Shown: in pieces, positions 43,597-62,873 of the stretch
Layout of the letters: every line of letters begins with the position of its first letter
How positions within the stretch are numbered: position 1 is the first letter of the stretch
Source: a virus
Virus record (IMG/VR): IMGVR_UViG_3300027917_000020
Coordinates: 97,608 to 161,607 of that record
Direction: 5' to 3' (one strand)
DNA: 64,000 nucleotides
Notes under the pieces: model-generated
Database searches by the model: none
Seen by the model: only the letters and a program-made list of their open reading frames with translations
What the model was told of the DNA's origin: nothing
Made by a program: the position numbers and the translations under genes

Positions 43597-43884
43597 ATGC
43601 GATTAAAAAATTATTTATTGGAAGTCAAAGACTGGCAGAAAAAAAATAAACGATTTGAACTTGAGGTTAAGTATAGTAGTGATGCCGATAAAATTCCAAT
43701 TTTATTTAGAGATGCGGGACTTAAAATTGGGGATGATTGGGATTGGTTAACCTCAAATATTATAGGGATAGGCAAAAAGGCATTTGATGAGGTAGAGGAT
43801 TGGCTAATGTTCGGTAAAAAGAACAAAGATGGTTCATGGCCGATAATGAGTGTAGGGACAATCCCACCTAATAAGAGAAAGTAA
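43597..43884 (+). CDS. small capsid-targeted internal protein (CTS)
   Basis: Protein of 95 aa starting MRLKNYLLE|VK. AAGGAG precedes the start; its stop overlaps the next ATG (TAATG). Confidence 0.73.
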   Translation: MRLKNYLLEVKDWQKKNKRFELEVKYSSDADKIPILFRDAGLKIGDDWDWLTSNIIGIGKKAFDEVEDWLMFGKKNKDGSWPIMSVGTIPPNKRK

Positions 43885-45320
43885 TGCGATTTAAACGATA
43901 TCTTGCGGAGGCAAGGGAAATGTTTAAAGAGTGGCAAAAATATGTGCGTGATAATAAAGAACTTACCGCCGCTGTCGGTGTCCTTGATAAAATAAATAAG
44001 TCTGGATACAAGGCTTATATAGTGGGCGGAACGGTACGGGATATTATTCTCGGAAACCTTAAACCCCATGATATAGATATAGCAACAAATGCGCCTATGG
44101 ATGAACTTGGGCGTATGTTTAAAACCTTTGATATTGGCAAGTCTCGTGACTTCGGTATCGTGGTTGTAAGGTACGGCTCATTTTCCTTTGAAGTAGCGCA
44201 ATTTAGGCAAGATGGAAAATATAAAGATGGACGCAGACCAGAAGCGGTTACAATTTCAGGCAGTTTTGAGCAGGATGCGGCAAGACGAGATTTTACAATT
44301 AATGCAATGGGCATTAACGCCAGCGGAGAAATTATTGATTATTTTGATGGACGAAAAGATATCCAAAACAAAGTGCTTAAAACCGTTGGCGACCCTCGAG
44401 AGAGATTCGGTGAGGATTATCTCCGAATGCTCCGAGCACCAAGATTTGCTTCAAAACTTGGCTTAGAAATTGAGAAGGGAACCGAAAAAGCAATTCAAAA
44501 ATTGTCGACTAATATAAAAGAACTTGCACCAGAACGTATTTACGATGAACTCGTAAAGGCGGCATCACAAAGCGGTGATAAGTTTGCGGATTATATTGTC
44601 CAGTTGGATAAACTTAAACTTTTAAAATATATTCTGCCGGAAGTCGGAAACCTAAAATGGTTTAGGGAAAACTTAAAACATCATCCCGAAACAAAGGGGG
44701 AAGGTGGAACAGTATATAGTCACGTATTAGCTGCCCTGAGAAAGAGCGATACTGCCGACCCTATAAAGAATTTGGCTATATTATTACATGATGTCGGCAA
44801 GGGTGTGACGTTTGCTCAAAAAGAAGGGCTTCCTACTTATTTTGAACACGCTAAAATGGGCATCGAGCTTGTGCGCCATATTGCTAACCGACTTAGAATG
44901 AGCAATAAAGATAAGGACGCTTTATTATTCGCAGTCGGCAACCATATGAAGTTTCATAATATCCTAAAAATGAGGCCATCTAAAGTTGCTAAACTTGTAA
45001 ACGATGACCACTGGGATGTTCTAATAGCGGTAGCCAGAGCAGACGAATTTGCACGTGGCGAAACCTTTATGTATAAAGGTGAATTTGAAAAAATAGTTGA
45101 TAAGGCCATCAAAATTAAAGAAAAATTTGGTATGCCTGTCGTTAACAAACAGTTAAAACTCGTGGACGGTAAACACGTTATGAATCTTACCAGCCTTAAA
45201 CCGGGGCCAAAAATTGGTGAGGTTATTCGTAAAGCAACAGAGTGGATTATGGATAACGATATTACCGACCAAGGAAAAATAGATAATTATATTAAAAAAA
45301 TTGCGGGAGAAGCAAAATGA
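43884..45320 (+). CDS. cca: capsid-targeted CCA-adding tRNA nucleotidyltransferase (CTS)
   Basis: Protein of 478 aa. Leader MRFKRYLAE|AR is a textbook CTS. Then a class II nucleotidyltransferase head: VGGTVRDIILG, HDIDIATNAP (catalytic DxD), RRDFTINAMG and ERFGEDYLRMLRAPRFASKL. A C-terminal HD domain follows (NLAILLHDVGKG, VGNHMKFHN). The enzyme adds or repairs the CCA end of tRNAs. Here it would be packed in the head, cut after residue 9 and injected. The tRNA cluster in the same genome gives context. Enzyme call is firm; packaging is inference. Confidence 0.93.
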   Translation: MRFKRYLAEAREMFKEWQKYVRDNKELTAAVGVLDKINKSGYKAYIVGGTVRDIILGNLKPHDIDIATNAPMDELGRMFKTFDIGKSRDFGIVVVRYGSFSFEVAQFRQDGKYKDGRRPEAVTISGSFEQDAARRDFTINAMGINASGEIIDYFDGRKDIQNKVLKTVGDPRERFGEDYLRMLRAPRFASKLGLEIEKGTEKAIQKLSTNIKELAPERIYDELVKAASQSGDKFADYIVQLDKLKLLKYILPEVGNLKWFRENLKHHPETKGEGGTVYSHVLAALRKSDTADPIKNLAILLHDVGKGVTFAQKEGLPTYFEHAKMGIELVRHIANRLRMSNKDKDALLFAVGNHMKFHNILKMRPSKVAKLVNDDHWDVLIAVARADEFARGETFMYKGEFEKIVDKAIKIKEKFGMPVVNKQLKLVDGKHVMNLTSLKPGPKIGEVIRKATEWIMDNDITDQGKIDNYIKKIAGEAK

Positions 45321-58052: not shown

Positions 58053-59363
58053 ATGAAAAAACTTAGTCTAACTAAAATCGTAGGTATGGTCTTTATCGGC
58101 ACTCTCTTTATTATTGGTCTTATTTGTACGCCAATGATTTTTGAGACTGTTGAAAAAGGAACATACCAAGTTAAACAAGCCGCTGTAAGCGGTACAATGT
58201 CGGCCAAAATGACACCCGGACTTTGGTTACAAATGTTCGGTGATATTGATACTTGGCCAAAAGCTGAAACCTACTTTTTTACCGCAGAAAAAGATACTGA
58301 TGCCGGTGATGAAGATGGTGACGCTTCAATAGAAGTGAGGTTTAATGACGGTTCACTTTGTAAAATCAGTGGAACGCTTCGTATTGTAATGCCGACTACT
58401 GAAGGTGAAGCCATATCTCTTGTTGTTAACCGGGGTCATAAAACATATAATGACCTTCAGGAAAAACTTATTAAACCGACCCTTCGTAACGTCCTTCGTT
58501 CCACTGCCAACCTTATGTCGGCACGGGAATCTTATTCAGAAAAACGCCTTGATTTTATCACATGGTCACGTGACCAGATTAATAATGGCGTATATAAAAC
58601 TGAAGAAGAAGTCCGTGAGGTTACAGACCTTGTAACGGGCGAAAAAACTTGGCGTAAAGTCAAAAAGATTCGCACTGATAATAGTGGTACACCTTTATAT
58701 GAGTCCAATCCGTTAAATGGTTTGGGTATCCAATTGGCCAACTTTGAAATCAAGACATTCGTCTATGAGAAAAAAGTTCAGGAGCAGATTGCAGCCCAAC
58801 AGGAAGCACGGATGGCCGTGGAAACTGCTAAAGCAAAAGCCGAAGAAGCCAAACAGGAAGAGCTAAAAGCGGTTGCCGAAGGTAAGAAAAACGTAGCCAT
58901 TGCGAAGTACGAAAAAGAGCAGGAAAAAGTGAAAGCGGTTGTCGATGCTCAAAAGGCCAAAGAAGTTCAGGAGCTTGATGCTCAGAGAGACAAAAACGTT
59001 GCGGTTATTGCCGGTGAAAAACGTAAAGAAGTTGCCGCTCTTGATAAAGATGCCGCCGCTTTGAAAAAGCAAGAGCAAATCTTGTTAGGTCAGGGTGAAG
59101 CCGAAAGGAAGAAATTGGTATTAGCCGCTGACGGTGCTCTGGCGCAAAAACTTGAGACTTATGAACGGGTTAATGCTATGTACGCTGAAGCCATTAAAGG
59201 CTATAAAGGCAACTGGGTGCCGACTACTGTGTTAGGCGCAAGTGGTAACTCAGAAGCCGCTGGTGGCGCACAGACGCTTATTAATTTATTAACTGCTAAA
59301 ACCGCCGCTGACTTGGCACTTGATATGTCAGTTCCGGCCGGTGCATCCGTTGACAAAAAATAA
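58053..59363 (+). CDS. SPFH / Band-7 domain membrane protein
   Basis: Protein of 436 aa. N-terminal membrane segment (about 7-30, VGMVFIGTLFIIGLICTP) then SPFH domain (VEKGTYQVKQAAVSGTMSAK to about 250), then a long Ala/Glu/Lys-rich coiled coil (about 235-360). Stomatin/flotillin-type proteins assemble at membranes and guard proteases or microdomains. A hairpin and a small single-TM gene follow, perhaps a partner. GGAAGGAG precedes the ATG. Confidence 0.85.
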   Translation: MKKLSLTKIVGMVFIGTLFIIGLICTPMIFETVEKGTYQVKQAAVSGTMSAKMTPGLWLQMFGDIDTWPKAETYFFTAEKDTDAGDEDGDASIEVRFNDGSLCKISGTLRIVMPTTEGEAISLVVNRGHKTYNDLQEKLIKPTLRNVLRSTANLMSARESYSEKRLDFITWSRDQINNGVYKTEEEVREVTDLVTGEKTWRKVKKIRTDNSGTPLYESNPLNGLGIQLANFEIKTFVYEKKVQEQIAAQQEARMAVETAKAKAEEAKQEELKAVAEGKKNVAIAKYEKEQEKVKAVVDAQKAKEVQELDAQRDKNVAVIAGEKRKEVAALDKDAAALKKQEQILLGQGEAERKKLVLAADGALAQKLETYERVNAMYAEAIKGYKGNWVPTTVLGASGNSEAAGGAQTLINLLTAKTAADLALDMSVPAGASVDKK

Positions 59364-62428: not shown

Positions 62429-62580
62429 AGGATGGTTACAGCAAACAAAATCATTCCATTGTAAGGACGTGGTTGTGGGTTCGAGTCCCACTCCGTGGTT
62501 GTGGGTTCGAGTCCCACTCCCGGCCCCAAAATTATGGCCGGGATAGCTCAATGGGTAGAGCACGAAGATAATACCATCCT
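62429..62580 (+). tRNA. circularly permuted tRNA-Thr(TGT)
   Basis: The 3' part (62455-62528: TCC, loop ATTGTAA, GGACG, TGGTT, T-arm, acceptor 3' strand TCCCGGC, C, CCA) precedes the 5' part (62537-62564: GCCGGGA, TA, D-arm GCTC-AATGGGTA-GAGC, A, CG) with an 8-base linker. Joined 5' to 3' part at position 28/29 they give a perfect tRNA-Thr: anticodon stem CGTCC/GGACG, acceptor 7 bp. Flanking AGGATGGT (62429-62436) and ACCATCCT (62573-62580) pair over 8 bp, bringing the ends to be joined together. The T-arm is present twice (see repeat). Confidence 0.75.
62469..62520 (+). repeat. 26-bp perfect tandem duplication within permuted tRNA
   Basis: Unit GTGGTTGTGGGTTCGAGTCC plus CACTCC, at 62469-62494 and 62495-62520. 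It spans the variable loop, T-arm and first acceptor bases. One copy gives a canonical tRNA; two give an extra T-arm. Could be real or an assembly artefact. Confidence 0.9.
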
Positions 62581-62590
62581 GACTTTTTAA

Positions 62591-62716
62591 GGGGCAGTCC
62601 CTGTTGGATATTTTTGCAAGAGGGTGTCTGGCAGGGGATTAAAATTTACCCTGCATAAGGATAATTACAGCAAAGAACACTTGGTTAAAGAGGTTCAATT
62701 CCTTACTGCCCCGCCA
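62591..62716 (+). ncRNA. elongated tRNA-like RNA (126 nt)
   Basis: Acceptor GGGGCAG/CTGCCCC, discriminator G, encoded CCA, T-loop TTCAATT with a weak stem. Inside are CCCT/AGGG and a GCAGGG/CCCTGC hairpin, then GGATAATTACAGCAAA, which recurs with two changes (GGATGGTTACAGCAAA) at 62430 in the permuted tRNA. If the middle is an intron, GGTGT-CTGGCAG + ACACT would give an Ala(GGC) arm, but this is not certain. Confidence 0.5.
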
Positions 62717-62723
62717 ATTTTGG

Positions 62724-62873
62724 ACCCTAAATGATGCTAATAGGGAATTAGCACTTTGTGAAGATAGGCCAATCTTTGTATGCAAAGTCCGGTTCGATTC
62801 CGGTGCGAAGCAGTGGACTGCATTTCTGTTAGCGCAGAAATTAGTTAGGTTCGATTCCTAACCGTTTAGGGTT
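62724..62873 (+). ncRNA. unresolved tRNA-like segment with two T-arm motifs
   Basis: ACCCTAAA and TTTAGGGT can pair at the ends. Inside are a D-arm-like TGCTAATAGGGAATTAGCA, a hairpin with loop around AGGCCA, CCGG-TTCGATT-CCGG, GCAG/CTGC, ATTTCTG/CAGAAAT, and GTTAGG-TTCGATT-CCTAAC. No CCA and no clear anticodon. Possibly split, permuted or decayed tRNA sequence. Confidence 0.35.

What the first reader, a model, noticed from the sequence alone, without database searches (positions are those of the whole stretch)
62429..62580. Circularly permuted tRNA-Thr(UGU) in a phage tRNA cluster
The 3' part of a tRNA, ending in CCA, lies upstream of its 5' part with an 8-base linker. Joining 5' part (GCCGGGA...GAGCACG) to 3' part (TCC-ATTGTAA-GGACG...) restores a perfect five-pair anticodon stem, seven-pair acceptor and all conserved bases. 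An 8-bp helix between flanks (AGGATGGT/ACCATCCT) would hold the ends together. Permuted tRNAs are known in some red algae and archaea; I know of none accepted for phage.
Basis: partly seen in the sequence, partly recalled or inferred. Interest (0 to 1): 0.9.

Follow-up and report, generated by a model that had tools for sequence, protein, structure and literature searches.

The report
Phage Y-like RNA mimicking permuted tRNA
The "scrambled tRNA gene" is real, but it is best read as one member of a large, apparently undescribed family of small phage RNAs that carry a tRNA look-alike on a conserved stem and are encoded beside a phage Ro60-like RNA-binding protein, rather than as a tRNA that the cell stitches together.

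Summary
The anatomy is confirmed to the base: P1 stem AGGATGGT/ACCATCCT enclosing a tRNA 3' half, an acceptor hairpin and a tRNA 5' half; joining restores a 5-bp Thr(UGU) anticodon stem. The same frame (7-bp covarying stem, then CAGCAA motif) occurs in 431 distinct elements from 158 loci. Elements sit next to a gene for a DUF2828+vWA protein (median 174 bp, 78/78 same strand; conversely 49/80 independently found DUF2828 loci carry one on the gene strand, 0/80 on the other). Its predicted fold matches Ro60/Rsr (top 5 PDB hits). This record encodes one DUF2828 gene, flanked by three mini-elements; the window element is the only other strict one in 161 kb. Relatives usually close the acceptor with 3-8 nt loops and lack CCA; a third of mini-elements are just an anticodon stem-loop. 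Best reading: Y RNAs (YrlA-like tRNA mimics) of a phage Ro60-like RNP, with a different protein-binding stem. Ligation into a working tRNA is not supported. Binding and decoy function are inferred. New variant of a known kind.

The parts
62429..62436 (+). 5' strand of terminal stem P1 (AGGATGG + T, 8 bp with 62573-62580)
   Evidence: sequence; MFE pair; 7-bp P1 perfect in 80 of 108 relatives found without using P1, control 0.7%
62436..62444 (+). conserved motif UUACAGCAA directly after P1
   Evidence: logo of 431 elements N-T-[A/T]-CAGCAA; scrambled-motif controls
62445..62454 (+). A-rich spacer before the tRNA 3' part
   Evidence: sequence; A/T-rich in relatives
62455..62469 (+). anticodon arm positions 29-43 (TCC-ATTGTAA-GGACG), anticodon UGU (Thr)
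   Evidence: sequence; hairpin in MFE; same organisation in 43 relatives
62469..62494 (+). 26-nt repeat copy 1 (holds a T-arm, 62475-62491)
   Evidence: exact tandem duplication with 62495-62520
62495..62520 (+). 26-nt repeat copy 2 (holds the T-arm next to the acceptor, 62501-62517)
   Evidence: exact tandem duplication
62518..62543 (+). acceptor hairpin: TCCCGGCC (62518-25), loop CCAAAATTAT (62526-35), GGCCGGGA (62536-43); CCA at 62526-28 lies in the loop
   Evidence: MFE; closed acceptor hairpins in 122 relatives
62544..62564 (+). D-arm (GCTC 62546-49 / GAGC 62558-61), A26 (62562), 27-28 = CG (62563-64) pairing with 42-43
   Evidence: sequence; bridging-pair covariation in relatives
62573..62581 (+). 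3' strand of P1 (A + CCATCCT) followed by the family's G
   Evidence: closing G used as a filter
62658..62673 (+). second, orphan copy of the 5' module (AGGATAA-TTACAGCAA) without closing strand, inside the anticodon-loop region of a tRNA-like unit 62591-62716

Best explanation
The locus encodes a small structured RNA, not a decoding tRNA: a phage Y RNA. Its terminal stem P1 followed by UUACAGCAA is the docking module for the phage's own Ro60-like ring protein (DUF2828 + vWA, record 74,532-75,989), and its interior is an effector domain that copies a tRNA in circularly permuted order (anticodon arm - T-arm - closed acceptor hairpin - D-arm). Shown here: the family, the P1 and junction covariation, tight same-strand linkage to DUF2828, and the Ro60-like predicted fold. 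Inferred: that DUF2828 binds P1-CAGCAA; that the RNA stays unjoined with a closed acceptor; and that the displayed tRNA or anticodon-loop mimic engages tRNA-recognising enzymes, most likely as a decoy or adaptor that shields phage tRNAs from host tRNA-cutting defences (about 0.4 for this function; the identity as a Ro-linked Y-like RNA about 0.85).
For: 431 unique elements in 158 loci share A-G-G-A-T-N-N / N / T-[A/T]-CAGCAA ... P1' + G. P1 was perfect in 80 of 108 permuted hits selected without it; control 0.7%. DUF2828 in 41 of 49 element-bearing records and in the own record at 74 bits; among 45 records taken because the motif seemed to match by chance only 2 had it, and these two (L007, L033) carry real or near-perfect elements on inspection. 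Nearest element to DUF2828: median 174 bp, 78 of 78 same strand. Converse test: 49 of 80 independently found DUF2828 loci have a strict element on the gene strand, 0 on the other strand, scrambled motifs 0,0,0,0,2,0. DUF2828 model (pLDDT 79.8): top five PDB matches are all TROVE/Ro60/Rsr, E 1e-9 to 4e-6. In the own 161-kb record the only four strict elements are three flanking DUF2828 and this one. P1 positions 2 and 5 are record-specific (within-locus identity 0.94 and 0.85, shuffled 0.64 and 0.58) while 4, 6 and 7 drift, as expected if read by a co-evolving protein. Minis: 59 of 177 contain a canonical anticodon stem-loop, 1.7 expected. Cultured phages show the same pairing: Lolly9 gp54, PhiImVa-1, vB_VpaP-MS02, KP13-26.
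Against: No RNA or binding data. The window element lies 85 kb from the DUF2828 gene. This copy has C73-CCA and its record shows no conventional tRNA-Thr, so a decoding role is not excluded; its doubled T-arm could also mean a decaying gene or an assembly error. Sequence homology of DUF2828 to TROVE is weak (PDB profile search E 0.22), so the link is by fold. Not every element-bearing record shows DUF2828 (8 of 49 lack a hit; some are fragments). Anticodons of the mimics are neither enriched nor depleted relative to the conventional tRNAs of the same locus, which gives no support for any particular target.
Confidence: 0.83

Rival explanations
1. True permuted tRNA gene: the transcript is cut at P1, ends 28 and 29 are ligated through a circular intermediate, and the acceptor loop is opened to give tRNA-Thr(UGU).
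For: Perfect 5-bp anticodon stem on joining here and in 40 relatives; bridging pairs covary; CCA in the right place in this copy; no conventional tRNA-Thr in the record; the phage encodes a tRNA nucleotidyltransferase at 43884-45320.
Against: Two T-arms here; relatives mostly have 3-8 nt acceptor loops including stable tetraloops, NCCA in only 19 of 122; about half of the parsed relatives lack U33/R37 loops; minis have no tRNA body; no RtcB or RNA_ligase family in the record. The bridging pairs would also form in the unjoined RNA.
Confidence: 0.08
2. Genuine YrlA (RF02553) of a TROVE/Rsr system.
For: Same permuted T-acceptor-D layout; below-cut-off YrlA matches here and in relatives.
Against: No match reaches the YrlA cut-off; TROVE in 0 of 45 element-bearing records and not in the own record; the terminal stem and CAGCAA motif differ; an anticodon arm is present. 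Phage Blueeyedbeauty, which encodes TROVE, has a permuted tRNA-like RNA without CAGCAA.
Confidence: 0.05
3. Accident: two neighbouring tRNA-Thr copies lost opposite halves, leaving a pseudogene; the flank helix is fortuitous or an assembly artefact.
For: 26-nt tandem duplication in this copy; disordered tRNA-like units follow (62591-62716, 62725-62872).
Against: More than 100 distinct relatives with the same frame, covarying P1, strand-specific linkage to DUF2828, including complete cultured phage genomes.
Confidence: 0.04

Closest known systems
YrlA bacterial Y RNAs (Rfam RF02553) with Rsr/Ro60 (TROVE)
   Same: Ends paired in a protein-binding stem, permuted tRNA-like T/acceptor/D domain with closed acceptor, encoded beside a Ro-fold protein, present in phages
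   Different: Different stem (P1 + CAGCAA, no match above the RF02553 cut-off), partner is DUF2828 not TROVE, anticodon arm retained in many, tandem arrays and mini forms
Permuted tRNA genes of red/green algae and archaea
   Same: 3' half before 5' half; joining gives a cloverleaf with anticodon
   Different: Acceptor closed by short loops mostly without CCA, conserved P1/CAGCAA frame, many members cannot decode; joining undemonstrated
Dictyostelium Class I RNAs (Rfam RF01414)
   Same: Short stem joining the ends, CUUACAGCAA right after it, variable A/U-rich middle, 3'-CUG (alignment); 31 of 32 element-bearing records have E<=1 matches, best 4e-7
   Different: None reaches the cut-off (41.5 bits; best about 36); 5 of 14 control genomes also ring at E<=1; no tRNA mimicry reported; relation may be convergent
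Phage TROVE/Ro60 proteins (jumbo phages, PMC7824862; Thermus phage phiLo 9l5y)
   Same: Phage-encoded Ro60 fold
   Different: DUF2828+DUF7788 architecture, no Pfam TROVE match

Membership tests
YrlA (RF02553) | Score above Rfam gathering cut-off | tested here: not met
   37.4 vs 69 bits; relatives 24.6-40.7
YrlA (RF02553) | Permuted T-arm / closed acceptor / D-arm domain | tested here: met
   window fold; 122 relatives
YrlA (RF02553) | Linked to TROVE-family Ro60/Rsr | tested here: not met
   TROVE 0/45 and none in own record
Y RNA in the broad sense | Encoded with a Ro-fold protein | tested here: met
   DUF2828 linkage and Ro60/Rsr fold match
Y RNA in the broad sense | Physical binding to the Ro-fold protein | not testable with these tools
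   needs pull-down or binding assay
Permuted tRNA gene | 3' half precedes 5' half and joining gives a cloverleaf with anticodon | tested here: met
   (with an extra T-arm in this copy)
Permuted tRNA gene | Acceptor end that can be opened and carry CCA | tested here: inconclusive
   CCA present here but inside a 10-nt hairpin loop; NCCA in 19/122 relatives
Permuted tRNA gene | Mature joined tRNA or circular intermediate | not testable with these tools
   no RNA data
Dictyostelium Class I RNA (RF01414) | Score above Rfam cut-off | tested here: not met
   best about 36 vs 41.5 bits in relatives; no match to RF01414 in the window

The most novel reading that the evidence does not exclude
DUF2828 proteins and stem-CAGCAA RNAs form a second, widespread Ro/Y-type RNP system, separate from TROVE/YrlA, that large phages use to display tRNA and anticodon-loop mimics against host tRNA-cutting immunity; the abundant Class I RNAs of dictyostelid amoebae would be its eukaryotic branch.
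Probability: 0.25. Interest if true: 0.95.

Novelty: new variant of a known kind. Interest (0 to 1): 0.82.

Why it matters
It links an orphan domain family (DUF2828) to a fold (Ro60), a genomic partner (hundreds of unannotated phage RNAs) and a testable role. It shows that tRNA mimicry in phages extends from whole permuted tRNAs down to bare anticodon stem-loops, which makes the old question of why Y RNAs imitate tRNAs testable in a tractable phage. It also explains some odd "suppressor" phage tRNA calls, such as tRNA-Sup-TTA of Vibrio phage PhiImVa-1.

Tried and rejected
Relatives via the nearby 436-aa protein (window 58053-59363): one locus, no tRNA. INPHARED similarity with the window DNA: only a tRNA-Gly-like stretch. 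Known Rfam family: none above cut-off except tRNAs. YrlA/TROVE membership: rejected. RtcB and RNA_ligase in the record: none; other ligase families and the rest of the pathway were not searched. The hypothesis that mimics copy, or replace, the phage's own tRNAs: no signal (37/64 vs 34.7 shuffled for minis, 10/27 vs 9.4 for permuted). The hypothesis that AGGATNNTTACAGCAAA alone is diagnostic: about half of 115 distinct hits lack the closing strand, mostly chance matches, so the paired strand is needed.

Full report
OBSERVATION. The window is the last 64 kb of a 161,607-bp IMG/VR phage record. At 62429-62580 the sequence reads P1 (AGGATGGT) - TACAGCAA - spacer - tRNA positions 29-72 - C-CCA - AAATTAT - tRNA positions 1-28 - spacer - P1' (ACCATCCT). 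One fact was missed: a 26-nt exact tandem repeat (62469-62494, 62495-62520) duplicates the T-arm.

A FAMILY. A scan of IMG/VR with AGGATNNTTACAGCAAA returned many hits inside phage tRNA clusters, with the matching NN'ATCCTG downstream. In these 108 unique hits, chosen without reference to P1, 80 have a perfect 7-bp Watson-Crick P1, against 0.7% when stems and regions are exchanged. A strict search of the loci that the DNA scans fetched gives 431 unique elements with 148 different P1 strands. They fall into minis of 75 nt or less (177), 76-100 nt (40), 101-150 nt (174) and >150 nt (40). Loci hold up to ten strict elements.

WHAT THE INTERIOR IS. 59 of 177 minis contain a canonical anticodon stem-loop (5 bp, U33, R37) against 1.7 in shuffles; anticodons are mostly Lys UUU, Thr UGU, Tyr GUA, Arg UCU and Asn GUU. 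122 larger elements are permuted tRNA-like with a closed acceptor hairpin; loops of 4-6 nt are commonest, NCCA follows in 19. In 43 of these, joining gives a canonical anticodon arm, and the base pairs that bridge the junction (27:43, 28:42) are standard in 31 of 33, against 12.2 (maximum 20) in 2000 shuffles. These pairs can form without ligation, so they show selection on the arm, not joining. Others, including a group with hairpins such as CTATC-AAAC-GATAG, have no usable anticodon loop.

THE PARTNER. Mycobacterium phage Lolly9 has three elements right after gene 54, annotated RNA-binding protein, which is Pfam DUF2828 + DUF7788 (vWA-like). DUF2828 is found in 41 of 49 element-bearing records, and in the window's own record. 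Of 45 records chosen because the motif appeared to match by chance, 2 had it, and both proved on inspection to carry elements. Within the fetched loci the nearest element lies a median of 174 bp from the DUF2828 gene, always on the same strand (78/78). Starting from the protein instead, 49 of 80 DUF2828 loci carry a strict element on the gene strand, 0 on the other, and six scrambled motifs give 0-2. In the own record exactly four strict elements exist: one before and two after the DUF2828 gene, and the window element 85 kb away; all four P1 strands end in TGG. Positions 2 and 5 of P1 are shared within loci far more than between them, while positions 4, 6 and 7 are not, which points to a co-evolving reader. 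The predicted DUF2828 structure matches TROVE/Ro60/Rsr chains as its five best PDB hits, followed by vWA domains alone. TROVE itself is absent from 45 element-bearing records; Streptomyces phage Blueeyedbeauty, which encodes TROVE, has a permuted tRNA-like RNA without the CAGCAA motif.

CONCLUSION. The element is a Y-RNA-like RNA of a phage Ro60-like RNP; its effector domain is a permuted tRNA mimic. Shown: sequence family, covariation, linkage, fold of the partner. Inferred: binding, absence of joining, decoy or adaptor function. Published knowledge covers YrlA tRNA mimicry and its basal Rsr-binding stem (PMC8394870), TROVE in a few jumbo phages (PMC7824862), a Ro60-like fold in mycobacteriophages (PMC12363180) and YrlA in phages (cited in PMC7765460). 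The library searched held four papers mentioning DUF2828, none of whose titles or abstracts concerns phage. Hence: new variant of a known kind. A formal resemblance to Dictyostelium Class I RNAs (described as unique to dictyostelids in PMC7919456) is recorded as a lead.

Noticed in passing
62591-62716: tRNA-like unit (acceptor GGGGCAG/CTGCCCC, CCA) with a roughly 50-nt insert in the anticodon loop that ends in an orphan module AGGATAATTACAGCAA lacking its closing strand; not called by ARAGORN. Possibly an element recombined with a tRNA.
   Followed up: partly
62725-62872: Outer acceptor CCCTAAA/TTTAGGG with D- and T-arm encloses a second T-arm (CCGGTTCGATTCCGG) and extra hairpins; not called as a tRNA.
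   Followed up: no
43884-45320: Phage-encoded tRNA nucleotidyltransferase (phrog_2244, E 2e-74) although the conventional tRNAs of the cluster mostly encode CCA.
   Followed up: no
L094:2757-2811, L076:2702-2757 and others: Mini-elements match Rfam Dictyostelium Class I RNA full length (33 bits, cut-off 41.5): same terminal stem, CUUACAGCAA and 3' CUG.
   Followed up: partly
L071, L091, L041, L025 (230-260 nt), L048:9456 and L071:5284 (166-173 nt): Large RNAs framed by the same P1/CAGCAA module with conserved non-tRNA interiors; L091 has no Rfam match.
   Followed up: partly
L351:3038-3152 (Vibrio phage PhiImVa-1): Annotated tRNA-Sup-TTA of 115 nt is probably a mis-call spanning two adjacent elements of this family.
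   Followed up: partly
L353, L354 (Streptomyces phage Blueeyedbeauty, Mycobacterium phage Phabba): Permuted tRNA-like RNAs in these phages share a GTTATCT/ATTATCT-type stem motif instead of CAGCAA; none reaches the YrlA cut-off. Blueeyedbeauty encodes TROVE.
   Followed up: partly
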